From Phorcus lineatus (taxonomy: Eukaryota > Mollusca > Gastropoda > Trochida > Trochidae), in contig OV121081.1 in NCBI GenBank assembly GCA_921293015.1, positions 66,233,022-66,297,021 of the forward strand: a stretch of DNA of 64,000 nt, in the 5' to 3' direction. A program made the position numbers and the translations under genes. Shown one piece after another: positions 27,701 to 64,000 of the stretch; positions within the stretch are counted from its first letter, which is position 1; every line of letters starts with the position of its first letter. The notes under the pieces were generated by a model. The model saw only the letters and a list, made by a program, of their open reading frames with translations. It did not search any database and had not been told where the DNA came from.

Positions 27701-30700
27701 ACCTCCATTGAGTTATTCACCCCTAAGAAACTAATAACATATACGCTTTAAAGCCTGATTTCAGGCCTATAGGGGTGAAAACGTTAAACCATTTACACAA
27801 GTAGAACCGTACCACATACGCTATCTAAACATCTATTGCATTATACAAATATTAAACAGTGATAGGAAAGAACACTCACAGATAAAGCAAGTTCAAAACA
27901 AGGCATTGAGATTGTGGATCTAAGGTGACCCATGAAAGAAAATGCAGATACCATAAATCTGCAGATAGAATACCATATCAGACTCTTCCTCTTATCTACT
28001 ACACACTCAAAACCATAGACACATCCATTATGCAGCAACATAACCATTGCCTTGCAATCTGAAGTTAAACAAAATGTTGCTTCATCCTGATCTCTCCCTT
28101 TTGTATATGACAGCAAAATTGTTCTCAAAACTACTTAAATATCTACACTAAACAACAGAAAACTTCAGTGCAACTCTCTCACATTGAGTACTTAGGAATA
28201 TAAGAAAAAGCCAGATGCCCTAATCAAACAGCCTTACACCAGTTGGATCAGTCAAGGCTTATCCAACCAACCAAACCCATAGTGAACCAGCTGGATGTCG
28301 AGGCTTTCCCAACCGAGTCTCGTTGTGAACTAGTTGGATGTCCAGGCTTACCCAACCAAGTCTCATTGTGAACCAGCTGGATGTCGAGCCTTACCCAACC
28401 AAGTCTCATTGTCAACCAGCTGGATGTTGAGGCTTACCCAACCAAATCTTATTGTGAACCAGCTGGATGTTGAGGCTTACCCAACCAAGTCTCATTGTGA
28501 ACCAGCTGGATATCCAGGCTTACCCAACCAAGTCTCATTGTGAACCAGCTGGATGTCGAGCCTTACCCAACCAAGTCTCATTGTGAACCAAATGGATGTC
28601 AAGGCTTACCCAACCAAGTCTCATTGTGAACCAGCTGGATGTTGAGGCTTACCCTTCCCTACCAAGTCTCATTGTGAACCAGATGGATGTCGAGGCTTAC
28701 CCTAACAAGTCTTATTGTGAACCAGCTGGATGTCGAGGCTTACCCTACCCTACCAAGTCTCATTGTGAACCATTCTCATTGTGAGGCAGCCCAGTTGAAA
28801 GGAGACTAGCAGTGCACATGACTATGTTTGAGTTGTAACTGGGTTAGCAGTAACACACTCACAGGCTCACAGATCAATATACAAGAGGAAGTCCTAATCA
28901 ATCAATACTAATTAACTGCAGCAAGCCGAGCCTCTTCCCTTGCTGACCGCTACTAAAGCTTGTCAGTGCAATCGACGGTAGCTTTTGACATTGAACAACT
29001 CTCTCCTTCCTCTACATGTTAGTAGAATCAACAGAAGCTTCACATCCTGATTGTGTCTCTACACAAACTTCAAGTTGTACTTATTCAGGGATACCTGTAA
29101 ATGCTTTAAGGCAGCCCAGATGATGGAATGTTTCCGTCAAGCACTGGTCGGTATCTTTTAACTGTTCTATGATCCATCAAGTTCAAATTCCTGTAAAAGT
29201 CTCCATACATACTTGGATGTCTACAAAATCAGTGTTCAACTTCATAAAAGCTTTGTGGCAATCCAAATGATGGTATTCCTCTGTCAGAATTCTTGTTTGT
29301 ACCCTTTGTCCTCTGTCAACATTCTTGTTGGTACCCTTTGTCCTCTGTCAACATTCTTGTTGGTACCCTTTGTCCTCTGTCAGTGTTCTTGTTGGTACCC
29401 TTTGTCCTCTGTCAGTGTTCTTGTTGGTACCCTTTGTCCTCTGTCAACGTTCCTGTTGGTACCCTTTGTCCTCTGTCAACGTTCTTGTTGGTACCCTTTG
29501 TCCTCTGTCAACGTTCTTGTTGGTACCCTTTGTCCTCTGTCAACGTTCTTGTTGGTACCCTTTGTACTCTGTCAGTGTTCTTGTTGGTACCCTTTGTCCT
29601 CTGTCAACGTTCTTGTTGGTACCCTTTGTCCTCTGTCAACGTTCTTGTTGGTACCCTTTGTACTCTGTCAGTGTTCTTGTTGGTACCCTTTGTCCTCTGT
29701 CAACGTTCTTGTTGGTACCCTTTGTCCTCTGTCAGTGTTCTTGTTTGTACCTTTTGACACCAGAAAACACACTTCTTCATGTTCACAGATCGTACAGCAG
29801 TTTCACATCTTGCTTCAGTTACTACATTGACTTCAGTGTCCACAGAATTAGTGACAGAACCTCATAAATTTATCCTAAAGATATCTATATCTGTCTACTT
29901 GTCAGTAGCTATTGATACTGCACAAATCTCCATAAATAAATCAACATCCTCAAAGTTGCATGTCTGCAAAATTATGGAAATATCGCTGGTATTTTCTTCG
30001 TCAGTCCCCTTTTAGTAGCTTTTGACACTGGAAACCTCTCTCCCACTTCCATGTTTGTAGATCCATCAGCAGTTTCAAGTCTTGCTAGACTCCATAATTG
30101 TATTTGATGTCAAAAAATCAGCCACAGATGTTGTATGGGTTCAAAATCTTTTGGAAAGGGCAATAGGACATTCTTTCATATGCATATACTTTTGATTCTT
30201 AATGCCATTAAAAACTCCAGCAGCAGTCTGTACATGCACCGCCACTGCATCTACACTGTCTCAGGACATTTACTTTGCTTATAAGTGCAGTGTATGAAAT
30301 AATGCCCATCTGCCAGTCTGTAAACTGGTGAGTTTGAGCCAAGCTGGTAACTTTTGAAGGTTTTTCTTTAATTCAATTCCTTATTTTTTCCTTTCCTTAT
30401 TTGATAAAAGCACACTTTTGGACTGGTATTCTTTTAGGCTAATTTTATACACTGCACATTATACATTTTATATATATATATATATTTTTAAGCTCTCTCA
30501 GTGCTAAGATAGAAAATTTTAATGTGTGGTACTTACGACAATATTAGAACTAAGAGAGCTTAAAAAGTCTAGGTCCTGGTAAGTCATTTAAAGCACATTG
30601 ACATGAGAAGTTCAGTACAAGAACTGCAATACATACAGAGTGAGTTGATAAAAAGCTGCTGTTCTTCCAGTAACATCAATGAAATCAATATGAGTACTAA

Positions 30701-33700
30701 AGGTTTCAAATATTCATGATGCCAGGTGGTAATTATCAAATATATACTTTTGGCTGAGATGGATGGCTAATTTGTCCAATTAGAATAGTGTGATTACTAA
30801 CATTATACTTAGCATGAGTCAAATTAGATGACATATACTAATGACTCAACAAATCAGCATGCATTGTAAGTGAAATATTGGACAGTGTACACCTGCCAAT
30901 GAGGGAACCTTACAGTTTGATAACAAATCATATCACCATACCTTGAAACAGTAAAATATGATATATACATATACATATAATATATATATAAAGATATTTT
31001 GTTTTTAGAACCCATTTTCTTAAGAAATTAAATCTTGAAAGCATTGATTGTGTAGTCACTGTCATACACAGGGTACAAGTAAGGCAGGCAAGAGTAGCTG
31101 ACAATTAATGGTGTTCATTAATATAATTTATACTTAACCATGATATTAAAGTATCAATAAATATACTTATTCTTTTTCAACATTCTTACACATATTTTCT
31201 GTTTGAACCACATGTGAGGAAAACTATTGAAACATATGTTATCCCTCCCAGTTATCATCCATTAGGCACCATATTATGAATGTTGTCACGCCTCCTTCCA
31301 GACTGGGATCTCGAGTTATAAGATTTAGTCAAACTTAACATTACTTAACGTTTCAGAATTATACTGGCATCATTAGTAGTTACTTCATTATCAGTGACAG
31401 TGACATAGGCCTTAAAACTGCGAGAATTGACAGAAAATCTCTTACCCAACAACTTCAAAGAACAGAAGAAGAAGGGAACTTTGAGACAAGGGGAATTTCT
31501 TCATAACTACATTAGTTGTGCATTTGAATGAGCTACAACAGCATCAAAGCATATTTTTGGTCTATTAAGCCTACCATATTCATGTTAGTATTTCAAACAA
31601 TTTTGTTCATAATCTAAATGTTTTTCTATATGGCCATTATTTTAAATAATAAAAGTGTTGAGTTGTGACCTTAATTTCTGTGCTTATCCTAACAATACCA
31701 AACTGAGGCTTCTGTACAGCAATCAGTGCTAAACCTAAGGTAAGTAGTCTTCACCCCTGACAGTGCTCTTTAAGTGGTATCTCATTGTTTTCGTGAAGGC
31801 ATGTTCTCACAATGTACAGAAATTAAACAACTAGAAGTTGTTACCATAAACTCACAGTGAGAAAGTGTGTACAAGAGATACAAAGCCACTGCAGAACACA
31901 GAAGACATAGTTTTCACTCATTCTGATTCACAAACAACAGCAGTAGGCATAACCGGCATATATACATATATATATATATATTATATATATTTATAGTTTT
32001 CACTCATTCTGATTCACAAACAACAGCAGTAGGCATAACCGGCTTATATACATATATACATATTATATATATTTATAGTTTTCACTCATTCTGATTCACA
32101 AAGAACAGCAGTAGGCATGACCGGCATATATACATATATATATTATATATATTTATAGTTTTCACCCATTCTGATTCACAAACAACAGCAGTAGGCATGA
32201 CCGGCATATATACATATATATATATGTTATATACAAGACCACGGAGGCACTATTGACTGTTAAATCCTTTTTGTTAAACAATGTTAAAACATTAAACAAC
32301 TATAATCATGGAACTCTGCAACATTTATCATTATCATTGTGATAAATGTACATTTGCAAGAACTTATATAAATAAATTGTTGTTGAACTTTAAGTTCAAA
32401 TGACATTTATGAAAATAGAACTCAGTGGTTGTTTCTGTAACAAATTCGAAACAATGATAATAATCAGAAAAGTCAGGACTGCTGAACAGATTCCGAAGAT
32501 CACAGGCAAGAGCAGCATATCGAGCACGTCAAAGATGGCCGACATACAGTCGCAAGAGTCCTTCACCGACCCTATCACTTAATTTGGTTGACCTGGTTTC
32601 CGTTTTTATATATATATTGATACAAGAATAAATATTAAAGCTTATAAGTTTAATACTGTCCCATATTGAAACATACCAGTGCATGAAGAATCAAACAAAA
32701 CAGCCATTTTTAAAAATGTCAAATGCGAATTGCATATTAAACCTTAAATCGATGCCAGATTGCCAGATCAAATCCACATTTTCAAGGTTATGAACTGCCA
32801 AAGGGACTATGTTTCATACACTGGTTAACAAGCAATGAATACAAGTACCCAACACCAAAGTAAATGACAATAAGACTAGCTCACCTTGTTTGAGCGCAGT
32901 GCCATCTTGCCGCCACATCTTGCACAGGACTTGAGGTGGCAGTAGTGGCAGCTGTGTCCAACGCCGTCTGCAAACTTGGTCTTGTGGCATATCTGGCAGA
33001 CGGCCCCCTCATCTTGCAGGGGGATCTTTGGCGTCTGCTCCGTCAGCTTCTTCACCGTCTGTTGGTAACTCTCGAAGTCATCCTGCATTTGTCTGAAAGA
33101 TATTTAACACTCAGTCAACCTCAGATATCAGCATTTAGATAAATAAATTACTTTCATTTGGTATTTGCCAACAAATTTTTCTGAAAATCTGTGTCTGTCT
33201 GAAAATCCCATTTTTGTATGATTTAAAGCCGTGTACACTCTGTCTGTCTATTCATAGAAACCAAGCTTACAATTAATATCATGTTTGCCTTAACTATTAA
33301 TTCTATCTGAAAATGATAGTTTGTCTGAAAATCCTGCAGTTTGCTAACTGTGTAAAGCCATCCTTTGGTAGGCAGGTACATATACTACAATAAGCTAACA
33401 GGTGCCACGGCTAAAGCAACAGCCCAAGAAGGCCTAGCTGTGTATTCAAAGATCACATCTTATTCAAATTAATGTATTTTGTTTTCTACCATTTATCTCA
33501 AGAAAAAATGTTATGCTATGTTACAATAATGGAATAATAAAAATGTTTCTCCGCTTGAACTCCGCTTTTCAAGATTACATCCCTCAGCAACTGTGACTAG
33601 AAGATTAAACTGAATTAAAGATCTCAGAGATCTAAGTCATGGGCCTGCATTTAAAAATCTCCCATTGAGTATAGATAGTTTTAAGTACAATGCATTGCCT

Positions 33701-36700
33701 TAAGATCTCCCAATACATAGAGGATATTTGACATTTCTCATCGAATACCATGGATATTTCATTGAGTGAAGTAGAAATTTATATTTTCACGAGTGGCGTA
33801 GCCATGAGTGTAAATGTATGATTTTCTACTTCACGAGATGAAATATTCTTGGTATTCGACGAGAAATGTCAAATGGTCTATTTATTATGTTTCCCAAAAC
33901 CCCGTAAACGACCCTAACTATATGAATGGAGAAGCTAAAATGCTTGGCTAGCGCGGCCGTTGCATTACGTCATTCAATTGTTTCGTGATGTCACAGACGA
34001 CGTCATATGATTGTTGCATCATTTCACTGAGTAGAATACCATTTTTATTTCACTCAGTGAAAATACAGGTTATATTTTCACCAATAAATGGCATATTTCA
34101 CCATTCGAAATATAATAATAATAGAGCTTAGACAATTTATGCGCAATATATCCTGTCACAAAGTCGCCTATACGCTCATGCATGGGCCTGTCTTAACAAC
34201 TCTCCCATTGAGTATAGATAGTTTTATGTACAATGCATTGCCTTAAGATCTCCCAACACTAAGAGAGCTTAGACAATCTAGGCGCAAATATATCCTGTCA
34301 CAAAGTCTCCTATCTGCTCATGCATGGGCCTGTATTTACAATTCTCCCATTGAGTATAGACTGTTATATGAACCATCCATTGCCTAAAGATCTCCCAACA
34401 CTAAGAGAGCTTAGACAATCTAGGCGCAAATATATCCTGTCACAAAGTCTCCTATCTGCTCATGCATGGGCCTGTATTTACAATTCTCCCATTGAGTATA
34501 GACTGTTATATGAACCATCCATTGCCTAAAGATCTCCCAACACTAAGAGAGCTTAGACAATCTAGGCGCAAATATATCCTGTCACAAAGTCACCTATACG
34601 CTCATGCATTGGCCTGTATTTACAAATCTCCCTTTGAGTATAGACAGTTTTATGTACCATACATTGCTTAAAGATCTCCCAATGCTAAGAGAGCTTAGAC
34701 AATCTAGCTCCTGCCTGTACAAGCACAAAGTCGCCTATTCACTGTATTGATCTGGGCTACATGGAGGCAGGCCACGGCTGCATATTTCATGGCAACTGTT
34801 GATGCTACAGAAGCTGGTCCATCGAGGATAAGGATAATCAAAACATGTTTAACATTCAGTCCACTTATTGACTGAAACCTATCTCCATAGAACCACTCAA
34901 TTCCATTCATATGCAGCTACTCTTGTATAACCAAAACTTCCACTCATGTCGAAACAATATGCTTTAGAATCCAACATTCGAACACTCTGAGTTAATGATG
35001 ATCAATCTATAGAAATTCTTATTTCCAAACAAGAACAAAGTCAGTAGATCTGATGGCATGGGTAGGCTTGTCAACATTTTTCAGATACCATGCATAGGAA
35101 CTTAGTAGTCAAACATGTCAATCCTTGTCATTGAATTTGCTTTGATAGTGTACTAACTGTTAATGAAAATTTCCTTGTTACAGCTAATTGGTTCAGTATT
35201 GTTATAATATATATATATAGGTTTAAGAATGTTTATTAAAATCAAGAAAAAGTACCACGGTTGGAGCCTGGCAATTAGTTAAACTAAATGTTGGAAACCA
35301 ACTATACCAGACACAAATTGCCGAGAAAGCAGATTTTGATTTGTTCATGCCCAAGGCATCACCACAACTTAGGACAAATATCATGGATAACAATTTATCT
35401 AATCTTAGACTTTCACATTTCTTTTCAGATTCTCATACCTTTTTCAAGCATGAATGACATACAAAAGATACAGTAAGACACAGAGGCAACAAGATGAGAT
35501 GTGGAGGTGAAGAGATGATTAACAATAACAACGAGTACACACTCGAAGAAAGATAACATTAGTGATAACATATACCGGAAGACAGTTCAAGTCTCCAATC
35601 TCAAGTCTCATCATGGGGAGAGAACACCAAAGTCTCTCACTGTCTAGCAACTGAGATGGTCACCCATCCACCAGGCAAACCATGTCCATTGTTGCTGAAC
35701 TTCAATAAAAGCAGTACAGGACAATGTGGCACTACCTGGTTTTTGTGAGTGAAAAGACACTTGACAACATTTTAATTTGATATTTGGTGTGAATCATGTG
35801 AGATGCTGGGGTGACCTGGGGTTTAATGCCGCGTCTAAGAGTATTTAACTTATATCATAGTTGCTAGTGTTCGAACCCCTGACTTCTTGATCCAAAGCCA
35901 AAAGCAAGAATCATGTGACAGCATCGATAACTCAGAGGATCAACTGTACAACCCTTTCAACAGTATTTACTACGAAATTGCTCCGAAGTGCGTAGAAATG
36001 TCAGGTAATTACATGAATCATTAAGTCAAAATTTATTAGCAAGTTACATTGTTTGACTCTATTACTTGTGATAGGTCACTGCATACTGTAAATGTCAAAT
36101 ATCTAAGCTAATTGGTATTAACCCAGTTACATAGGCAAAGTCTTACACAAATGAATTCACAAACATTTACAAATATCTGCTGAAAATATTGTGAGTTTAA
36201 TTTTCAAGACATCAGTGTTAACGGTCAAAGATATTTGAGTATTACATAACTTGATAAGTTTATTTTTCTAAACATGGATTTATATAGAAAAATTAAGAAT
36301 TTTATGGACTTCTTCATTGCAAAGAGATGTGATCTTTTGGTGTGTATAGCAAGAATTCTTATTCATACAGATGACCTGGACTTCTAAAATGCCACTCAAA
36401 GAATTTTTGGATTTATATTGTTTTAGGTTTGGAATATATTCTTTAAATGAATTTCCTAGTACAAGCAATAAAGAATCCTAATTAGTTCAAAGTAAGTTAA
36501 GAAATGAGAGAAAATAGGACAAGAAGTCAACTGAAAATGGAAGACTGTTTTGGATTGGATCTTTGCCACTGAAAAATTACTGCTGCTTTGATGCTTTGCA
36601 ACGACCAAGAAATATAATATTACCTAATTGTAAAAGAGTCATTTTCTGTTTTTGTGGTACAAAGCCCACTGTCAGTGAGTAAAGTCAAGGTTCAATCTAA

Positions 36701-37054: not shown

Positions 37055-40000
37055 TAAAAATCACGCTTGTAAAGCAATTTTTTCATTTGAGAACCTGTCC
37101 TGTGAATTAAACCTGGCATCACTTAAAAAAGTGTTCAAACATCTTTATACATAAGGTTAATGAAGAGTTATTATCAAAATATCTGTATACTTATTAACAT
37201 CATGCAAGCCAGACAGGTTTCCATGTCTGTAACAGACCTGAAGTCTATCCTGACTTTCAGAAACCACACTAGTCTATACTGTACAGATTGGAATGATGAA
37301 TTCTTGGAGAAATTGATAACTGGTTTAGTAATAGTGTCAAACACATTGTAATGACAATGAAAAACATTGTGTTATATTTAGAGCTTACAATCAATGACAA
37401 AAGTAGGTGACAATACATGAAATCTAAAATTAATGCTTATGCTTCATGTGATCACGTCAACACAAGAACCAAATCAGGTCAACCCAATTAATTACTACCT
37501 ATATTTATGATTGACTTACAATCACTGGCATGATTTTTATTAAATTGCCTTATAGCAAAACTCATTGCCAACGACATGTAGGGCAACCCTTCTAATCCTC
37601 CAAACTTATCAACTTGTAGGTGTCAAACATTAGCCAAGACCAGTTTTGTAGGGTAACCCTTCTAATCCTTCAAACTTATCAACTTGTAGGTGTCAAACAT
37701 TAGCCAAGACCAGTTTTGTAGGGTAACCCTTCTAATCCTCCAAACTTAGCAACTTGTAAGTGTCAGACATAAGCCTAGACCAGTTTTGTAGGGCAACCCT
37801 TCTAATCCTTCAAACTTAGCAACTTGTAAGTGTCAGACATAAGCCTAGACCAGTTTTGTAGGGCAACACTTCTAATCCTCCAAACTTAGCAACTTGTAAG
37901 TGTCAAAGATAAGCCCAGAACAGTTTTTTTTTATAAAATTGCCTTATAGCAAAACTCATTGCCAACGACATGTAGGGCAACCCTTCTAATCCTCCAAACT
38001 TATCAACTTGTAAGTGTCAAACATTAGCCTAGACCAGTTTTGTAGGGCAACCCTTCTAATCCTCCAAACTTAGCAACTTGTAAGTGTCAGACATAAGCCT
38101 AGACCAGTTTTGTAGGGCAACACTTCTAATCCTCCAAACTTAGCAACTTGTAAGTGTCAAAGATAAGCCCAGAACAGTTTTATAGGACAACCTTTCTAAT
38201 CATCCAAACTTAGCAACTTGTAAGTGTCAAACATAAGCCCACAACAGTTTTGTAGGGCAACCCTTCTAATCCTCCAAACTTAGCAACTTTTAAGTGTCAA
38301 ACATGTCAAACATGCTGCACATCGTAGAATCATGCCCATTGGATACAAGTGCTTAGCAACCTGTTGTAAAATTCTTTAGAAAAGCATAAAAAATGCTGAT
38401 TACATCAATAACAGCATGGTCATTGCATTAAGTATTGTAGTATTTTAGCTTGAGTGTTTGACAATTGAAAACCACATAATTTTTTAGATATGTAACCATG
38501 AGAAAGAGAACTATAAACTGAGTAATGTATGGCATAATTTGTAAGCGATCACCCTCTAGTGATGTTACACAAAAAGCCCAGCTACTATGAAGCCATATCC
38601 AATGGCACTTTATCATTATGCAATAGCAACCAATCTAATAATGCCTGCCTGAGGAATACTGTTGGAAACTCTCCAAGCAATCAATAACACTCCATTCTAA
38701 ACCAAAAGCAGAACATTTTAGCTTAAGTATAATCAAACCCATAAATAATGGAGCCAGCGCTTCTTTGGATACATTGTGTGCTTTCACAACTGAGTTTGGG
38801 CCAATGAGAGCGGATGACTATTAGCAGAAGACTAATCAGGTGTCAGATATGTTGCTGAAGTCTCTATATTCTCTGTCTGTCCGTCCGTCTGTTTGTCAGC
38901 GCTAGGGATGCAGGATGGCGCGATTGGCAACTCTTACTGTGCATTATTGATTCTGAACGCTCCCATTCATCTTTCCAAGCCAGAGGCAAATGCCCTGTGT
39001 ATTATGTGCAGCCACATGACGATAAACACATCACTCTAATTACATTCGTATAAACAATGTATCCCAAACAGACTTTTATTGAAAGACACAAAAACTGAGC
39101 AGTCCTTGTGGTAAAGTTTAGTGAGGTGGGCTAGTCTCTGGAAATTCAGCTCATGTAACCTTGACCTTCAAGCACGGACAGTCCAACCACTCGGCAAGAG
39201 CTCTTGCAAGTGCTGGAGCACTCAGGTCACAGACAGGAAAAACATGACGTAAAACCAATTTGTAGAAATTCAGTACACAAAACATCTATCATTTCATTCA
39301 ATTCAAAGAGACAGTCCTATAGAGGTATTTTTTGTGGAATTGAAAACCATTACGACATTCCTGTTTAAACATATAATTCCTAGATACATGATTATGACAC
39401 AATCCCCTTCTTGATATGTCTGCTGGTAATAGGTGGTTGCTTTTGATTTCACAATTTCACAAAGAAAATGTCAATTTGTTCAAAAAGGAAGACATTGTGC
39501 AATGATTCCTCGGTGCTACAAATGTTGAAATCCTTGCTTTAGCATGACAATTCATTGTTGATTCCTATAATTAAATGTTTGTAAATTGTGATTTTTCTTT
39601 TTTTTATCCGGAGGTTTTATTTTCTCAACCAATGCAAATAAAAGCTGATAGAACCCCCTCTTCAATGAAGAATTTTTCACAAATATTTTATAAGGGTAAC
39701 AAAAATAGATACAATTTCATTCATTTTTAAGCAGGTCTATCCAAGGGGTAAGGAATGCATGATATATCAAAAACCAATTTGTCGACCTGATGTACTGAAA
39801 ATTGTGATATTTTATCATTTCAAACAGGACTAAAGCCATATATTCATAAAGTTTTCATCTTATTTATAAAAGCTAGTATGAAATACAATCTGTTGATATT
39901 CACTATCTAGTATCTAGTATTTATATAGATTTTAAAGCAAGAGTTGGGCCTATTGGGCAGTCTGGAATAACTGAAGACATACTTTCAACCAATACTAAAA

Positions 40001-55056: not shown

Positions 55057-56615
55057 TTTTCTATGTTATTTCATTTTTAAATTAACGTGTTCAAATCAAC
55101 TATGTGTTTTATATTTTATAGATTATTTTGCACAATTCATAAAATAGCATTTTTATTATTTCATAACAAACATATTTAATTTTGCTGTAGGTCTAATGTC
55201 CATAATTCGCATCATATAGGTTTCATATCTCATATATTTGACATTTTTCTTATTTCATATGTCCAATAACTTCTATATGTATTGTCATGTACATGTTATG
55301 TTTTTATTTCAATAAATTCTAGCTCATATGACGGTTGTTTTTCATAGTTCACTCATCTCCATTTTCTGTTTGATGTCATTTATTATTTCATATAGCATAC
55401 AATTCTAAAGTTTACATAATCTTATCATCATTTTCATACTATCCAAGTATTTTATATTTGATCACATCACATTCACACACTTCTACAATTTACATATTGA
55501 ACATAGTTCAGTCATCATAATTATTTTGATAACACTTCAATGTTTCATATCATATATGTTTTTCATACTAGTTTTCAAAGTTTAATAATGAATTTCTTGG
55601 TTTCCATGTTTCATAAAATCTATAGTTTATTATTTTCAGTATGTTCAGTTTTCACATTTAATGCAACTTCCATTAATTAAGCATATCGTGTTTTTTCTTT
55701 TTAAAACAAGTTTTTCCACTGTGACATGTATTATTAAAATCAAAGGACCAGAATGTGTATATTAAGGACGATCAATCCAGCCCAAGATTTCTGAACAATA
55801 TACCTGTTGCTTTGGCTACCCTTTTGTTATCTGCTACTGACACTCGCAGTCTCGTATTGCATTGTATTGATCTTTTGTTTGACACCAAAGAAGAACTAAA
55901 GGAGTTGAAACTACACGTGAGGGAACACTCCAGTTTGTGCATTCATAATATTCATATTTTCAAAACAGATGAATGTTAATTATCAAAATTGTCACGAAAC
56001 TAAATTATATGCATTAACAATTAGCTCTAATGAACTTCAACGGATTTACCAAAGTAAGATCAAGCTGTGAAAAGTCTTAAAATTGTTAACATAACTATAG
56101 AACATTAGAACCTCGTATGAAAGACCCCTGGAGTTTCGTAATGCCTTTTCATATATGGTAATTATATCCACTGAATGCTGTGACTCCTGTAATATCGTTG
56201 CAAATGCAAATAAATGCCGTCACATTCCTGCTGTTATTTTTATTTACTTCCACTAAATAACTGAACGCATATAACTACAAATAACGGAACTGGTATAACA
56301 ATTAACTAGCAATTATAATTAATTAGTATATGAAACGATTGATGAGTGAGAGGAATCAAATATAGTTAATATTACATCAAATAGAAATCTTTAAGTGTTA
56401 ACGTTAACCATTAGATAGATAAGAAACTATTACAACAGTCAAAATTGGTAGCATTTTCATTTGCTAAAAGGGGAAAAAACAAACTCCTCAAAAATAGTAA
56501 ACTTTACATCAATAGAGATTAGCAACCACCAAATTATTACAAAAAAGTAACAAGCAGGCTTAAATGTACTTACTTACCTTTTAATTGATTTATAAGTAAT
56601 TATAGGTATGGAAGA

Positions 56616-59076
56616 TGTCCTGACCGTTACGGATTCATAACCAGAGCAAAGATTTTAAAATATGATTCAGAAAAATCTTTTTACAGTGCCATTCACATCT
56701 TCTACACTCTATAGTTATAACTTGATGGTAAAAATTGTCAACATGAATCATTAGAACAAAAAAATTTACCTTTCAGTAGCTTAACAGAAAATAACAGCAT
56801 TTTCAGAAATAGTATTGTGTTTATACTCTTTAGAAGGAAATATTAACTAAAATAAACATCTGGTGCTTAACCCATAACTTGTTTTAATGACATCTATTTT
56901 AAGAAGATTGATTCATAGATCCTTAAGGATTAATGAGATCAGTTAATTAAGACCAGTAACGGTTTGGACAACAGAGGTAACGGTATGGACAGTAATTGTA
57001 ACGGGTTGGACATAAATGATATCAATCCAATATAACATGGATTTCATGAACTTTTAAGTAACAAATTAATATCATTTAGCTTAAATGCTTACCCTTATTT
57101 GGACAGACAGTGAAATTTGAATTACAGATGGTGATTTAACAAACTTGACACATTTTCTTCAATGCCGTGGTAACGGCTTGGACATTTCTCATAATTTCAA
57201 TATGAAACTAATGAAGAATTTGGTCTTTACAAGATATACTGAAACAACTTATAAGAAAAATTAAATAACACTATCATGATAAAGGAATTACTGATAGCTG
57301 AATGAAATGTGCAGTTGTAGATCAAAAATGAAATGAATTGTAACGGTCGTGACATTTTTTGTAACAGTTAGGACAAAGCGTAAGGAATGAACCTTTTTGT
57401 CTTAAAAAGTTTAAATAAAGAAATTCTGAAAGACAACGAAACAACCACAATAATGCACAAATGGTCACACTTCACCAGCAACTGCATAGCTATTAATTAC
57501 TATCAGTAGATATGGTACAATGTAAGTTTCAAAGATTCTTTCAGTCAATTCGATACCTTTTGTATTTGTCAGTTGAGTAGTAAAAGGGAAATTGTAACAT
57601 ACATTTACAAAAATGCACAAGTTTTAGCAACACATAAAGCAACTAGGAAAAGTATTGATAAATTATATGATCATGATCACATTTAAAATCAAAACAAAAT
57701 CTTAAAAGGCTGAATACAATCAGGTTGATTTGCAAATGATTTATGTGTGAGTTCTTCACAACTCATTCTCAAAGTATATGACATAAATTGGTTACATATC
57801 AAATGCATTTGTTTTTCCTGAACAGTTAATAGGTCTTTGACCTTCTTTTGACACTCCTCAGTTTTTTTTTCTCTTAATGATTGGTTCTTTTTTGTGGATA
57901 CAGTAAGCTATTCAACTGATGCCATCTTAAGTTTTTCATCAACATTTCAAAACCATTTTGTAATAAAATAAGAAATACATGTTAAAAATGAGACATTGAT
58001 AGGTAGCAATCTAATTTCATACCAAAACTGCTAACTTGAATAAAAAAAGAAAGAAAATATTATCATGTGTTCATTATGTATTGGGATACACAGACATAAA
58101 AAGTTCCAGACCTTTACTGTACAATCTTGAAGATAGTTTCAAATAGGGAAATTTAAAAAATCACATAAAGCATTCAAATAATCATTTCCTTTTATCAACA
58201 CCAATATTGACACAGACTCATACTACTTTGAGATGTAATTAGAAATAGTAATACAAAATTCTGAAGAAAAAATTCCAAACCGTTACATTAAATTGTCCAA
58301 ACCGTTACACCATTTTCTTATCATTGATCATATAGAAAATATGAACTAATATAAGAAAATATGTTTTGTCTTTTGAAAAATAGTATCGAAATGATAATTT
58401 TATGCAATAGGCAATATGTCACCTTCCAAAATATTCTTTGAATAAAAATATATTCTATAAATGTCCAAACCGTTACCTTTTTTTGTCCAAACCGTTACAC
58501 CAAATCATTCATCTTAAAGCAACTACATCACAACCATTTTGAATAGTAAATTTATATACTCAAACAATTATCATTTTTGAAAGAATTCTGATTTTAAACT
58601 TTTCTTAATTTTTAAAAAATAACTTCATTAGTTCTTGAATTTCCAAACAATTTTGTCCTGACCGTTACTAAAACTGTCCAAACTGTTACCTTACATGATG
58701 GTAACGGTTTGGACAGGTAACGGTTAGGACAATTTTATAATAATCGGAAAAAAATAAAGAATGATCCCTAAATGATATCAAGTGACACACCATCCACCTC
58801 TTCCATTTTTGGACAATAAACTATTGTGTTCTGTGAAAAAAAAGGAATTTAATTTTATGCAAGCAACAGTCGTAACGGTTTGGACAATTAAGGTTGACGA
58901 ATTAAATTCCTACCTACTTGATGCTGATTTATTTCTGCAAAATATGCTGAATCTCTTTATTTCATATCCTACACTAGCACAGGATTTTGATCATTCAGAA
59001 ACAGCAAGTACAGATGCAGTGAAGCTCAATGGGGAAATTATTGTAGGAATTTTATGTTGCTGTAACGGTCAGGACA
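56616..59076. repeat. Array of 17 dispersed 15-bp motifs, consensus GTAACGGTTTGGACA
   Basis: Forward copies start at 56956, 56977, 56998, 57170, 57340, 57361, 58701, 58717, 58872 and 59062. Reverse-complement copies start at 56616, 58272, 58294, 58462, 58484, 58654 and 58675. Most match the consensus at 13-15 positions; the GTAACGG and GGACA halves are the most constant. DNA between copies is AT-rich and diverged, with only short shared strings (for example ACTAATGAAG about 20-25 bp after two copies). I know no named family with this motif. Confidence 0.9.
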
Positions 59077-59159
59077 CAAAATTTACGGACAGACATGTTA
59101 CACATTGTAGATTTTTAGTTTTTCAAGTTAATGAAAAATCAACTGCTCTGATGAAATAA

Positions 59160-59954
59160 ATTATCACTAATGATAAGCATGATATGATACTATTTGTTTG
59201 ATAAGGTTTATTTATACAGTTTTTGTGAACATATATACTATGACCGTCACCTCTGGACAGAGTAAACCTGTACATTTTGACCCTAAAATGTGATTTTATC
59301 AAAACTTTTAAAATGACAAGAATAAATCTTTATTTCTAGAACTGACCATTTACATCTAAATATTCTTCCTAGAAACTAAAGGCCCTTTTAAAACAAGTAT
59401 TTTTTTAAAAATCTTGATTGGACGGAAAATGACACCAATTTTGAAAACGACCCATATATATGTTACACTATGTTCCAAAATTGTTTCTGGTTACTGCAAT
59501 TGCCACATCGTTACTTTGTTCACGGTGTTGTTATACTGAATGTTCAACATTGATGAAAAAAAGTATGTGGTTAATTTATTTTCTCTTTCTCTTAGGGTCT
59601 TAATCATGAAGTAGTGAAAAATAAATAATATAAAACCATTTTTTATTCATTGAAGTTGATCATTTAATAATTATATGATGAAGTATATGTTGTGGAAGCG
59701 TAATTAACATTCAGACCGATTATAAATTATGATTATTGAAGTGTTCACTAGTTTCATTGAAAAGATCCACCTGGTTAATTGAGGCTATCACTCAGCTTTG
59801 CTGGTTTTTACTGGATAACTTGACGACACTTGTAATACACGAGACAGTGGTGCAATATAATGTACACAAGACACGCAAAAATACGATTGAGAATTCTGTA
59901 AATAGTCCATAGCAATATATCTAATATCAACCCATGATGTCATCCCCGGCGCCT
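59160..59954. other. Intergenic AT-rich stretch before the 233-residue gene
   Basis: I see no coding, repeat or regulatory feature here. Confidence 0.5.
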
Positions 59955-60057
59955 CCGATTGGTCGACTAGCTGAAGTGTTGACTACCGATTGGTCGCTAT
60001 GTTTATAAATCTATTTTTAACCCGTGACGTTATGGGGGATTTCCTGCTACATAAAAG
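59955..60057 (+). promoter_or_regulatory. Promoter of the 233-residue gene: twin CCAAT boxes, TATA, CRE-like site
   Basis: Two identical 11-mers CCGATTGGTCG (inverted CCAAT) are at 59,955-59,965 and 59,986-59,996, 31 bp apart. TTATAAAT follows at 60,003-60,010, TGACGTTA at about 60,024-60,031 and ATAAAAG at 60,051-60,057. Together they form a compact promoter for the gene starting at 60,246. Confidence 0.6.
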
Positions 60058-60184
60058 CAGACTTGCGTCAACGATAGCAACACAAACCGAAAGTCCATTG
60101 AATGTGAATACGATATCTCGATATACTCGGGGCATTTACTGTCTTGTAGAATTATATGTTCGGAAGCTAGCACTAGAAAGCAAA

Positions 60185-60340
60185 ATGGGTCGAACACGCC
60201 GTTACCGAAACTCTAATCGGTCTCCCCAAATTTGTTCCTGGGAGGATGACTGTCAGTGTCGTGTCTCCCCCACTGACCGGCCTCAACAAGAAGAAAAGGG
60301 TTTCCGTCTTTTCTCAGGAGACAAATGTCACTCCTTATAA
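60185..60340 (+). other. Upstream ORF overlapping the start of the 233-residue gene
   Basis: ATG at 60,185 in a near-ideal context (CAAAATGGG) opens 51 codons in another frame and stops at 60,340, 95 nt inside the main ORF. The peptide is Arg/Ser/Gln-rich with no family match. It would reduce initiation at 60,246 if it is in the transcript (inference). Confidence 0.45.
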
Positions 60341-60590
60341 TGCCTACGTGGGGGAGAATTTCATCGTCCATCAACATCAGTGGTTCAAAATACAGAAACT
60401 CATAATGAACACAGAGCTCGCCGGCATTGCTCACTGCGACTTCTTCCCCACAAGGAATGTAGATACGATGTCTCTCACTGAAGGGGCTGAGAAGATCCGA
60501 GATGTTCCGAATGCTGGAGGAAACTCGGTTCTTTCCGAGGTTATGTCTTTCGAAATGATGAGCAAGTGCTTCGGGGCTAAACTTGTCAAG
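60246..60590 (+). CDS. Unknown 233-residue protein, exon 1
   Basis: The ATG at 60,246 (AGGATGA context) is the first in the conserved frame; that frame is closed by TAG at 60,174. It encodes 115 codons and ends in phase 0 at GTCAAG|GTAAGA. A stronger, out-of-frame ATG precedes it at 60,185. Confidence 0.85.
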
Positions 60591-61972
60591 GTAAGAATCG
60601 GTTCTAAATGGCATGTACTTTGTAATGAAGATATGAATATAGGATATGACTATAGGTTTGTTTTGGATTAAATTTTGTGTTGGTTTACTTCAAAGAAAAG
60701 ATTTTTCCCTGTGGGTTTCCCCCAACCAAACAAGATTAACATGATTAAGATAATTCTGTTATATGAACATATATATGTAAAATCTTAGTATCTAAATACT
60801 TATCAGTCAGGAGCTATATATCAAAATTGTATCATAACTAATGATTATATGGCCTCCAATAAATGCATTCTTTAAAAGATCCTTATGGTATTTAATGATA
60901 TTTTAATGGCGAATTGGTTGTAGTGTAAATTTTGATTACGTTTGATTCATTGATCGTTATTTCTTCGAAAGGTGCCGTTCTTTTCGACTGTAGAAACTAT
61001 CAATACATTGTATTGTCTCTTCATGGGTAGTTGTACCTGCACACTTCCATTTTCAATGATTGTTCTCGCCACATTCCCCTTATATTACAGACCGAGATGG
61101 AGGTGACGTATTTCCCGACGGGTGGCTCCATCACGGACTACGTGTGCCAGGTATACGGACGGACGCTGGGGGTGTCCGTCACACGTGCCATGAAGTACCG
61201 TGGGAAGTATCTGCATGAGGACGCTCACCATCTCCTCTGCAAGAAACTCAAGGGTGAGCATACAGAAAATGTAACTTTCTATAGTTGGAAACCATATTCC
61301 TTTGTAAAGAGATTCTCCTTCCTTGTAGGAGATAACTATGTTCTTTTGTAAACGGTTGCCACGCTTCCTCTGTGGATAGCAACGTGGTCATTTGTAGAGA
61401 GTTATCATGTTTCCTTAGAGAGAGTGTCTCGTGCTTTGTAAGGACACTTATGTTCCTTGTGGGGGGATAATCGTGTTCCTATGTGGTAAATTTACTATAC
61501 TTGTAAACGATAACGATGTTCCTTTCTTATAAGTATCAAATTATAGGTCTTTATGGGTAGTTGATAGGATCGACATTTGATTACCCGCGGAGATAAGTAA
61601 ATTGAATATACTGTAGCAGAATGTGAACAATGTGTTATTATCTGACATAGAATTAACTCAAGTTAAGAGCGTCTAACTGAATTCCAAAATGAGATTAGAT
61701 ACTATGTATCGGCACTTTCTGAGACCCTCCAAAGAGTTTCCATCCCCTTCCCTAACGTTAACCTTTGTTGTGTTGCAGGTATCGTCCAGTCCAGCAGGAA
61801 CACCCAGGACTCGTGGAGCAAACAGATCCTGCACGTGTGGGCAACCAACAAGGAAGTAGCCCGAATCGTCGAACATGCGTATGAGAGTGTTCCGGAGGAT
61901 CTGAAAGTCAATACCATGGTTCTAGTTACCACGGCAACAGAGTCGAAGTTCATATTCTTGAATGCAACGTGA
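60246..61972 (+). CDS. Three-exon gene for an unrecognised 233-residue protein
   Basis: Coding exons are 60,246-60,590, 61,091-61,253 and 61,779-61,972 (345, 163 and 194 nt; 702 nt, 233 codons plus TGA). Junctions are AAG|GTAAGA with TTACAG, and AAGG|GTGAGC with TTGCAG; phases 0 and 1 agree. Exon 1 includes GENFIVHQHQWFKIQKL and LSEVMSFEMMSKCFGAKLVK. Exon 2 includes TEMEVTYFPTGGSITDYV and LGVSVTRAMKYRGKYL. Exon 3 includes WSKQILHVWATNKEVARI and VNTMVLVTTATESKFIF. No signal peptide or membrane segment is seen, so it is probably cytosolic or nuclear. The E...GGSITD...GVSVTR layout vaguely recalls PD-(D/E)XK nuclease folds, with Arg in the Lys place; that is speculation. I do not recognise the family, but the exon structure and composition make it a real gene. 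Confidence 0.88.
61091..61253 (+). CDS. Unknown 233-residue protein, exon 2
   Basis: Starts after TATTACAG, 54 codons plus one base. It contains the motif-like GGSITDYV and GVSVTRAMKY stretches that look like the core of the domain. Confidence 0.88.
61779..61972 (+). CDS. Unknown 233-residue protein, exon 3 and stop
   Basis: Starts after TGTTGCAG, completes a Gly codon and runs 64 codons including TGA at 61,970-61,972. Ends in hydrophobic strands (MVLVTTA, KFIFLNAT). No AATAAA is visible within the next few hundred bases, so the 3' UTR may be long. Confidence 0.87.
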
Positions 61973-64000
61973 TGTAGGTTGTAATTCATTGGACTTTGGG
62001 ATAAACAAGTTGCACCATGGTCGGAAGTATAGTCCATGCAGTCAGTTTATTGGTACTCCAAACTACTGATAAATGGGTTCACCCTTGACTGGCGAATTTT
62101 CACATTTGGCGTGAAGAACATCAGGAGATAAAATGACCAACGGCCATCACAGTGGAAAATACAAGAACCGTGTTAGAGCAACACCAATGACAATGCCGGA
62201 AGTCAAGACATGACATTTGTCTGTTGGCTCTTTACACCACAGGTAGATGGAACAAGCTGTAGACTGACATATGGCTTGTAGAACCAAAGATGTATATAAA
62301 CAGACCAAAGTGAATGCAAGCATGCAACAAAAACCAAGAAGAACAAAATGTATGTTTCGAGATGCTTTGGAACCACTGGTGCATATTTTACTTCATTTCT
62401 CCATTTACAGAATCTTTGACATTAGAACATTATAAAATGATATACATACATCCACCTCATTAATCCATCTCCATTACAGTGTAATTGTTCAGAATGTCAC
62501 ATGATAGAACGTTACTATGTGAGTGTGCAGAATGTCACATGATAGAACGTTACTATGTGAGTGTGTAGAATGTCACATGATAGAACGTTACTATGTGAGT
62601 GTGTAGGATGTCACATGATAGATAGAACGTTACTATGTGAGTGTAGAATGTCACATGATAGAAAGTTACTATGTGAGTGTGTAGAATGTCACATGATAGA
62701 ACGTTACTATGTGAGTGTGCAGAATGTCACATGATAGAAAGTTACTATGTGAGTGTGTAGAATGTCACATGATAGAACGTTACTATGTGAGTGTGCAGAA
62801 TGTCACATGATAGAACGTTACTATGTGAGTGTGCAGAATGTCACATGATAGAAAGTTACTATGTGAGTGTGTAGAATGTCACATGATAGAACGTTACTAT
62901 GTGAGTGTGTACGATGTCACATGATAGAACGTTACTATGTGAGTGTGTAAGTATGTGTGTATTTGTTAGAATGCGTCAAGTCTCAATTGACATTTAATTA
63001 CATGAGTATAATTATACCAACTGACTAGCATCTATATTTTGTAGAAAACGTTACAAACATCTATTATTATCCCTCAAAATCAAAACAAACAAATGACATA
63101 TTAATATCTTAAGCAGTTGCAATTTGCTTATCTTCCATTTAAAAATTGTATGAAATCAAAATTATAAGATGTTGAAAAGATTAAAACACTTTATCGACTA
63201 AATTAATATCAAATAAGGAAGCATTTTCATATATGAGAGATGATTAATCTATAAGTTTGAAATCATCCTTATTCACCCAGGGTTATTATTCTGTTTCTCT
63301 TCACGTCTTGCCCAAGAGGTTTCTTCAGAAACATTTCTAATCTAGTTAACTACCTTTGAATTTTCAAATTTGGTTAGGGAACAAATAGCCTACGAGTTGT
63401 TTTGACATAAAGTAATAGAAAAATGTGTCTTGGTATCTCGGTGTTTAAAACATCCTATTTGGCGGATGCGCAGGAACTGAGATGAATTGGAAAAATCAGA
63501 AGAATCCTTTCCACCTGGTAGGGCGAGAACACGAAAGATGTGCATGAGTTAAGACCTGGATTGCAAGCCAATTTCCTCAAAGCAATTAAAACGACGTTCG
63601 CGTAGAAGTGTCATTGGCTTACTCGTATCATGGGCAGGTAGTCCAAAAACAGATTTACATGATAAAAAGTCCCAAGGGTGATAAAGAGCAGAGTAACGGA
63701 ACATTCGGTACAAGTTAAACCGGTGAAGGATACCAATACGATTTTACTTAAATTTAATTTAATTGTATTTTCTAACTGAATTAACTAATTCTTTTGTCTT
63801 GCTGAACAGTTATTCATGAATATATTCAAGTAAGTAGGTAGCGTTGAATAATTGCAGCATGTGTCTCGTTTGTATGAAATTGTTACGAATATGTGAGTGA
63901 GTGAGCCTGTGATAATACTCCCAAACATTTCAACATTTATTTTTGTATTCACATATATTTCATTGTAAATAAACATTTATATTCAAGTTGTCTGCTTTTA
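61973..64000. other. Downstream flank of the 233-residue gene
   Basis: Apart from the 38-bp minisatellite the region is AT-rich and without a supported gene. An AATAAA near 63,967 is too far from the stop codon to assign. Confidence 0.45.
62486..62948. repeat. 38-bp minisatellite, 12 copies
   Basis: Units read GTGTGTAGAATGTCACATGA then TAGAACGTTACTATGTGA. Variants (TAG/CAG and GAACG/GAAAG) are interspersed. It lies 0.5 kb downstream of the stop codon of the 233-residue gene, possibly in its 3' UTR. Confidence 0.95.

What the first reader, a model, noticed from the sequence alone, without database searches (positions are those of the whole stretch)
56616..59076. Seventeen copies of a 15-bp motif in diverged DNA, in orientation blocks
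GTAACGGTTTGGACA and close variants occur 10 times forward and 7 times reverse within 2.46 kb and nowhere else that I could find in the window. Such a motif is not expected even once by chance here. Order is one reverse, six forward, a 0.9-kb gap, six reverse, four forward. The motif is kept while the DNA between has diverged, which suggests a protein-binding site. Options: subterminal transposase-binding repeats of an unknown transposon, an array for a DNA-binding factor (like the CENP-B box in alpha satellite), or an enhancer or boundary.
Basis: partly seen in the sequence, partly recalled or inferred. Interest (0 to 1): 0.82.

Follow-up and report, generated by a model that had tools for sequence, protein, structure and literature searches.

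The report
Spaced binding-site array in a transposon
The 17 repeated motifs lie inside a 3-kb mobile DNA element present in many copies in this genome; they look like docking sites for the enzyme that moves it, and a very different related element keeps the same spacing of sites although the DNA between them has changed almost completely.

Summary
In detail: 17 copies (10 forward, 7 reverse) in the stated order. The exact 15-mer occurs 183 times in the 958-Mb genome against 1 for the backwards control. The block is most of a 3.0-kb dispersed DNA transposon: 22 near-complete copies, 82-100% identical, window included; ends GGGTC...GACCC; 4-bp target duplications in 11 of 12 copies with both ends found; no transposase gene. 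The window copy spans 56439-59453 and lacks the outer 9 bp on the left. A second family, with almost no DNA similarity outside the motifs, has the same array and similar ends. Its 17-bp end lies beside one gene family in 17 of 18 places; one member has a 1172-aa frame with a D80D32E transposase-like core. Unexpected: 11 sites keep order, orientation and distance from the end within 3 bp over 1.34 kb in both families, while the spacers are near saturation (36% in-register identity, background 30%). Best reading: subterminal transposase-binding repeats with constrained spacing. Superfamily (Sola2-like?) and protein binding are untested.

The parts
56439..59453 (+). Non-autonomous DNA transposon, family 1 (3,015 bp in the window; complete copies such as L033 are 3,036 bp). 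The outer 9 bp of the left end are missing here.
   Evidence: Nine other copies start aligning at exactly 56439; eight of the nine reach 59435-59464, L037 stops at 59297. Ends compared; length.
56439..56458 (+). Left terminal inverted repeat, lacking its first 9 bp (GGGTCATTT in other copies)
   Evidence: (pair I14)
59425..59453 (-). Right terminal inverted repeat, ending GACCC
59454..59457 (.). ATAT, the expected right copy of the 4-bp target duplication; no left copy is visible because the left end is truncated
   Evidence: duplications in other copies:
56616..56630 (-). Outermost left motif site (reverse)
56956..57012 (+). Triplet of motif sites at 21-bp spacing (56956, 56977, 56998)
57170..57184 (+). 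Motif site
57340..57375 (+). Pair of motif sites (57340, 57361)
57376..58271 (.). Middle of the element, without motif sites except the degenerate 18th at 58103-58117; no ORF of 100 aa or more here
58272..58308 (-). Pair of motif sites (58272, 58294)
58462..58498 (-). Pair of motif sites (58462, 58484)
58654..58689 (-). Pair of motif sites (58654, 58675)
58701..58731 (+). Pair of motif sites just after the orientation switch (58701, 58717)
58872..58886 (+). Motif site
59062..59076 (+). Outermost right motif site, starting 378 bp from the right end when counted inward in copy L033

Best explanation
The motifs are subterminal recognition sites of a DNA transposon, most likely bound by its own DDE transposase. 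They are arranged as single sites, pairs or triplets (mostly 21-22 bp apart, two helical turns), separated mostly by spacers of 140-177 bp. The non-coding 3-kb element (family 1) is proposed to move when a transposase from a coding relative binds the sites near both ends, brings the ends together, cuts at GGGTC/GACCC and inserts with a 4-bp target duplication. The distances between sites, and not only the sites, appear to be under selection. Shown: a multicopy element, its ends, its duplications, the array in two families, conserved geometry, and a transposase-like frame in one member of the second family's gene family. Inferred: that this protein binds the motif, that it moves family 1, and that spacing matters for assembling the complex (possibly one nucleosome per spacer).
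For: Multicopy element with defined ends and 4-bp duplications. Exact motif 183 against 1 in the control; of the first 100 places listed, 85 lie in family 1 or its relatives and 6 beside family 2. Family 2 shares array and end type; its 17-bp end lies 1.7-2.2 kb upstream of one gene family in 17 of 18 places. A 1172-aa frame in that gene family, 466 aa of it read without a stop, with D80D32E. Register of 11 sites kept within 3 bp between the families while spacers are near saturation. 15 of the element's 30 CpGs lie in the motifs, which are 8% of its length.
Against: Excess conservation of the motif among young copies is modest: 235 of 2976 shifted masks do as well, and in several copies (L022, L025, L062, L068/L074, L073) motif columns differ more than the rest. 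No Pfam, NCBIfam or PDB family supports the transposase; D, D and E were picked by eye. 9 of the 100 listed exact sites are unassigned. The register claim rests on one copy per family (L033, L004); L001 and L078 are partly out of register.
Confidence: 0.75

Rival explanations
1. The sites bind a host transcription factor (for instance a Myb-type protein: TAACGG / CCGTTA resembles the Myb recognition element, recalled) and serve as a promoter or enhancer array that the transposon uses for germline expression.
For: The motif contains a Myb-like core (recalled). In family 2 one array lies upstream of the gene.
Against: The non-coding family 1 keeps arrays at both ends, in fixed register with the end, and family 2 also has an array downstream of the gene. 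A promoter need not be kept in an element without a gene.
Confidence: 0.12
2. The sites bind a host architectural protein (HMG-like, nucleosome-positioning or boundary factor) that helps to bring the ends together, while the transposase itself reads only the terminal repeats.
For: Spacers between sites of 140-177 bp are of nucleosome size (inference); the terminal repeats are conserved on their own.
Against: The exact 15-mer hits listed lie almost wholly in these elements (91 of the first 100); a host factor would be expected to have sites elsewhere, although diverged sites would be missed by exact matching.
Confidence: 0.1
3. The array is the remnant of an ordinary tandem repeat of about 170-190 bp, and the spacing is inherited and not selected.
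For: Regular spacing near 170 and 190 bp; other tandem arrays are common in the window. In-register spacer identity is slightly above background, so the two families' spacers do descend from one ancestor.
Against: Little similarity between units outside the motifs, orientation blocks, and spacer lengths kept within 2 bp between two families near saturation. With the indel spectrum seen between young copies, 0 of 20,000 simulated cases keep all six long spacers within 2 bp; with indels of <=3 bp only, P is 0.005 to 0.00015 for K 0.5-1.78. An assumed low rate (1-bp indels only, 0.03 per substitution) gives P 0.45, 0.15 and 0.04 for the same K, so the argument depends on the indel rate.
Confidence: 0.03

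Closest known systems
Sola2 DNA transposons
   Same: 4-bp, mostly AT-rich target duplications (Sola2: AWWT, ATAT, AAAT, ATTT; PMC3627910, passages read), short terminal repeats, large transposase, deletion derivatives.
   Different: Homology of the transposase to Sola could not be tested; no array of this kind is mentioned in the passages seen. Here some duplications are GGGT, AGGT and ATCA.
Hermes (hAT) subterminal repeats
   Same: Many short sites inside both ends (17 and 14), bound by the transposase, with phase relative to the end critical (PMC10368747, passages read).
   Different: hAT has 8-bp duplications; Hermes motifs are about 5 bp and concentrated near the tips; here the sites are 15 bp and spread over more than 1.3 kb from the right end.
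Sleeping Beauty IR/DR ends (Tc1/mariner)
   Same: Two transposase-binding direct repeats inside each ~220-bp end (PMC7827188, passages read); the ~165-bp distance between them (recalled) is close to the spacing here.
   Different: TA target and two sites per end; here a 4-bp duplication and 17-18 sites in all.
Ginger1 / Ginger2 DNA transposons
   Same: 4-bp duplications; large transposase, in Ginger1 with C-terminal extensions (PMC2836005, passages read).
   Different: Their ends follow TGTNR and Ginger1 targets CCGG or CCGT; here the ends are GGGTC and the targets mostly AT-rich.

Membership tests
Cut-and-paste DNA transposon (class II with terminal inverted repeats), non-autonomous | Multicopy element with terminal inverted repeats | tested here: met
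   (137 matches to the end pattern, control 0)
Cut-and-paste DNA transposon (class II with terminal inverted repeats), non-autonomous | Target site duplication of fixed length | tested here: met
   4 bp in 11 of 12 copies with both ends found, of 15 given; five unambiguous, six ATAT in AT-rich sequence; L071 has none
Cut-and-paste DNA transposon (class II with terminal inverted repeats), non-autonomous | Empty target site in another haplotype or relative | not testable with these tools
Same superfamily as family 2 (Repbase rule: same duplication length and positions 1-11 of the end with at most 1 mismatch; PMC4455052, passage read) | Terminal 11 bp with at most 1 mismatch | tested here: met
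   Left end GGGTCATTTTC against GGGTCAATTTC: 1 mismatch; the right end GGGTCGTTTTC has 2
Same superfamily as family 2 (Repbase rule: same duplication length and positions 1-11 of the end with at most 1 mismatch; PMC4455052, passage read) | Same length of target duplication | not tested
Sola2 | 4-bp AT-rich target duplication | tested here: met
   (mostly; GGGT and AGGT are not AT-rich)
Sola2 | Transposase homologous to Sola2 transposases | not testable with these tools
   no Pfam or NCBIfam model matched; the Sola papers sought are not held
Ginger | TGTNR termini | tested here: not met
   termini are GGGTC
MULE (Mutator-like) | 8-11-bp target duplication (recalled) | tested here: not met
   4 bp
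Subterminal transposase-binding repeats | Direct binding by the transposase | not testable with these tools
   needs a binding assay

The most novel reading that the evidence does not exclude
The transposon ends carry a spacing code: a transposase-binding array built from sites 21-22 bp apart, repeated about every nucleosome length, in which selection preserves distances to within 1-3 bp over more than 1.3 kb while the DNA between changes almost freely. Such an array would let a transposase assemble on chromatinised DNA, reading linkers between phased nucleosomes.
Probability: 0.3. Interest if true: 0.75.

Novelty: new variant of a known kind. Interest (0 to 1): 0.52.

Why it matters
Subterminal repeats are known in several transposons, but how far their spacing is constrained is rarely visible from sequence. 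Here two families that differ almost everywhere keep 11 sites in register over 1.34 kb, which gives a natural test of how a transposase assembles on long ends. If the spacers hold nucleosomes, this would link recognition of transposon ends to chromatin structure. It also gives a handle (the 15-mer and the GGGTC ends) for finding the coding relatives of such non-coding elements.

Tried and rejected
Nested insertions, rejected as autonomous copies: L071 (5.7 kb between the ends) holds a long frame that reads by eye as a LINE reverse transcriptase; L072 and L073 hold other inserts. L075-L077 share only parts of the right roughly 700 bp, the tip and one site.

FLYWCH/MULE as the transposase: L019 has a FLYWCH ORF beside an old array. 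Of the three copies of that ORF at 98-100% identity on contigs with a complete exact-motif list (C2:8261705, C5:45978912, C5:64230487), only L019 has an exact site nearby, so I read it as chance nesting; a fourth such copy, on C19, could not be judged. The MULE fragment beside L078 is not tied to the arrays by anything I found.

OTU domain: I first read the C-terminal part of the family-2 protein as OTU-like by eye. Pfam OTU does not match it, and 0 of the 83 PF02338 places overlaps the 91 places of that protein, so I dropped the label.

Rfam and ARAGORN: nothing in the window. PDB: nothing for the L078 protein, one row at E 2.1 for the transposase-like frame. Structure prediction was not tried, because its stated rule does not list loci from the genome search or the fetch from genomes.

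Literature: searches (listings seen) showed no paper on spacing-constrained arrays of this kind; the library lacks most subscription papers. Seven papers were seen in passages only.

Full report
Three more matches in the window are about the chance level (expected 1.31). In the whole genome (958 Mb, 74 contigs) the exact 15-mer occurs 183 times against 1 for the backwards control. At up to 2 mismatches the count is no higher than the control, so loose matches alone say nothing.

The block is part of a dispersed repeat. Window 56600-59100 gives 58 matches; 22 of these rows (the window included) cover at least 99% of the query at 82-100% identity, and only 40 of 295 candidates were scored, so this is a lower bound. 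Nine other copies start aligning at exactly 56439; eight of the nine reach 59435-59464 on the right, and L037 stops at 59297. Their ends are inverted repeats, GGGTC[A/G]TTTTCAAAATTGG inward, and the end pattern has 137 genome matches at <=3 mismatches against 0 for the control. Of 15 copies given, 12 had both ends found, and 11 of the 12 show a 4-bp target duplication: ATCA, AAAT, ATAA, GGGT and AGGT are unambiguous, six are ATAT in AT-rich sequence, and L071 has none. The window copy lacks the outer 9 bp of the left end. It is 3,015 bp long, with no stop-to-stop frame of 100 aa or more except one of 127 aa, and is therefore taken as non-autonomous.

Where the motif occurs: of the first 100 of 183 exact places (contigs C1 to part of C16; the rest are not listed), 75 lie in matches, 10 in more diverged relatives, 6 beside a second family, and 9 are unassigned.

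The second family (L078+L006, L001+L002, L004; 87-95% alike in the long blastn pieces) shows against family 1 only matches at the motifs and short flanks, apart from one 100-bp stretch around the outermost site (70%, E 0.027) and scattered chance-level pieces. It has the same kind of array, and two of its copies end in GGGTCAATTTCAGAATT. That 17-mer has 18 exact places in the genome, and 31 with <=1 mismatch against 8 for the control. 17 of the 18 lie 1.7-2.2 kb upstream of copies of one gene family; the one on C32 does not. On the contigs with a complete motif list, 5 of 10 such ends have an exact motif within 3 kb, and 6 of the 15 exact sites outside family 1 lie there, against 0.002 expected. 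The L078 frame (464 aa) looks like an internally deleted form: the copy on C25 has one open frame of 1172 aa in which query residues 1-38 and 35-461 lie 1.8 kb apart. The part of that frame which could be read, 466 aa without a stop, contains D, D and E in transposase-like context (picked by eye), with 80 and 32 residues between them. No Pfam, NCBIfam or PDB family matches it significantly. The array of the C25 copy itself was not read.

The most unusual result is the geometry. Counted from the right end, the sites of family 1 (copy L033) begin at 378, 568, 723, 739, 765, 786, 956, 978, 1146, 1168 and 1340. Those of family-2 copy L004 differ by +1, 3, 3, 2, 2, 3, 3, 3, 3, 3 and 2 bp, with the same order and the same orientation switch. 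The matched sites are 78% identical (128 of 165 bases). The six long spacers are 36% identical in register against 30% out of register (z 4.2), and gapped alignments score above all 200 shuffles, so they are homologous but close to saturation, about 1.8 substitutions per site by a simple correction. Their lengths differ by 1, 2, 0, 0, 0 and -1 bp. With the indel spectrum seen between young copies, none of 20,000 simulated cases keeps all six within 2 bp; restricting indels to <=3 bp gives 0.005 to 0.00015; an assumed low rate of 1-bp indels (0.03 per substitution) gives 0.45, 0.15 and 0.04. The conclusion therefore depends on indels being reasonably common, which 19 young copies show (42 distinct indels against 306 distinct substitutions). 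On the left, the first reverse site is followed after 340 bp (family 1, L033) or 338 bp (family 2, L078) by a triplet at 21-bp spacing; further in, the left arrays differ. L001 and L078 have parts of the right array shifted out of register, so the register claim rests on L033 against L004.

Conservation between copies is modest. Over 27 family-1 copies (of 52 loci given, 51 mapped; duplicate, short and diverged ones were dropped) the diversity is 0.038 in motif columns and 0.049 elsewhere, 0.029 against 0.048 without CpG columns, and 235 of 2976 shifted masks do as well. In nine of nine full-length copies aligned to L033 the motif columns differ less than the rest, but in L022, L025, L062, L068/L074 (one place) and L073 they differ more. 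Half of the element's CpGs (15 of 30) lie in the motifs, which are 8% of its length, although CpG columns vary most.

Mechanism. Shown: a mobile element with an array of sites near both ends, shared by two families with related ends, one of them linked to a gene family with a transposase-like member. Inferred: the transposase binds the sites, brings the ends together and moves family 1 in trans; distances between sites are constrained because the bound subunits must meet, or because nucleosomes occupy the spacers (140-177 bp). A host transcription factor or architectural protein remains possible, but does not readily explain why a non-coding element keeps both arrays in register with its ends.

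Known systems. Subterminal repeats whose phase matters are established for Hermes (PMC10368747, passages read). The 4-bp AT-rich duplication fits Sola2 (PMC3627910, passages read), but transposase homology to Sola could not be tested. I therefore place this as a new variant of a known kind: an ordinary type of element with an unusually long array of apparently constrained spacing.

Noticed in passing
L078:4536-4798 (G000:C1:39471935-39472197): In family 2 the sites occur as 63-bp modules of three degenerate 21-bp units, two such modules about 200 bp apart.
   Followed up: partly
G000: FLYWCH-type frames at 53% identity to the L019 query occur in 19 rows with the same score (117.1 bits); several have a MULE domain close by, for instance C16:48008245 and C16:48008997. 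It looks like a separate, recent Mutator-like expansion.
   Followed up: no
window 28267-29756, 31907-32233, 34119-34707, 37577-38304, 62491-62949: Several unrelated tandem arrays with units of 43, 32, 82, 142, 70 and 38 bp.
   Followed up: no
L055 and L063 (G000:C25:2708023-2708585 and C13:2877151-2878379): Internal deletion derivatives of 563 and 1,229 bp that keep both ends and the duplication; L055 keeps only the outermost left site. Whether they moved on their own or shrank in place is unknown.
   Followed up: partly
L075-L077 (G000:C1:40411600, C7:39297300, C1:59223700): An older repeat whose similarity extends 70-100 bp outside a GGGTTATTTTCAAAATTGG end, as if one of these elements had been carried along inside another repeat.
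   Followed up: no
window 59975-62046: Overlapping stop-to-stop frames of 100-164 aa right of the element; the two tested have no Pfam match.
   Followed up: no
L005:1756-2304 (-): A frame beside a family-1 relative matches the REJ domain (E 2e-12), which suggests an animal host.
   Followed up: no
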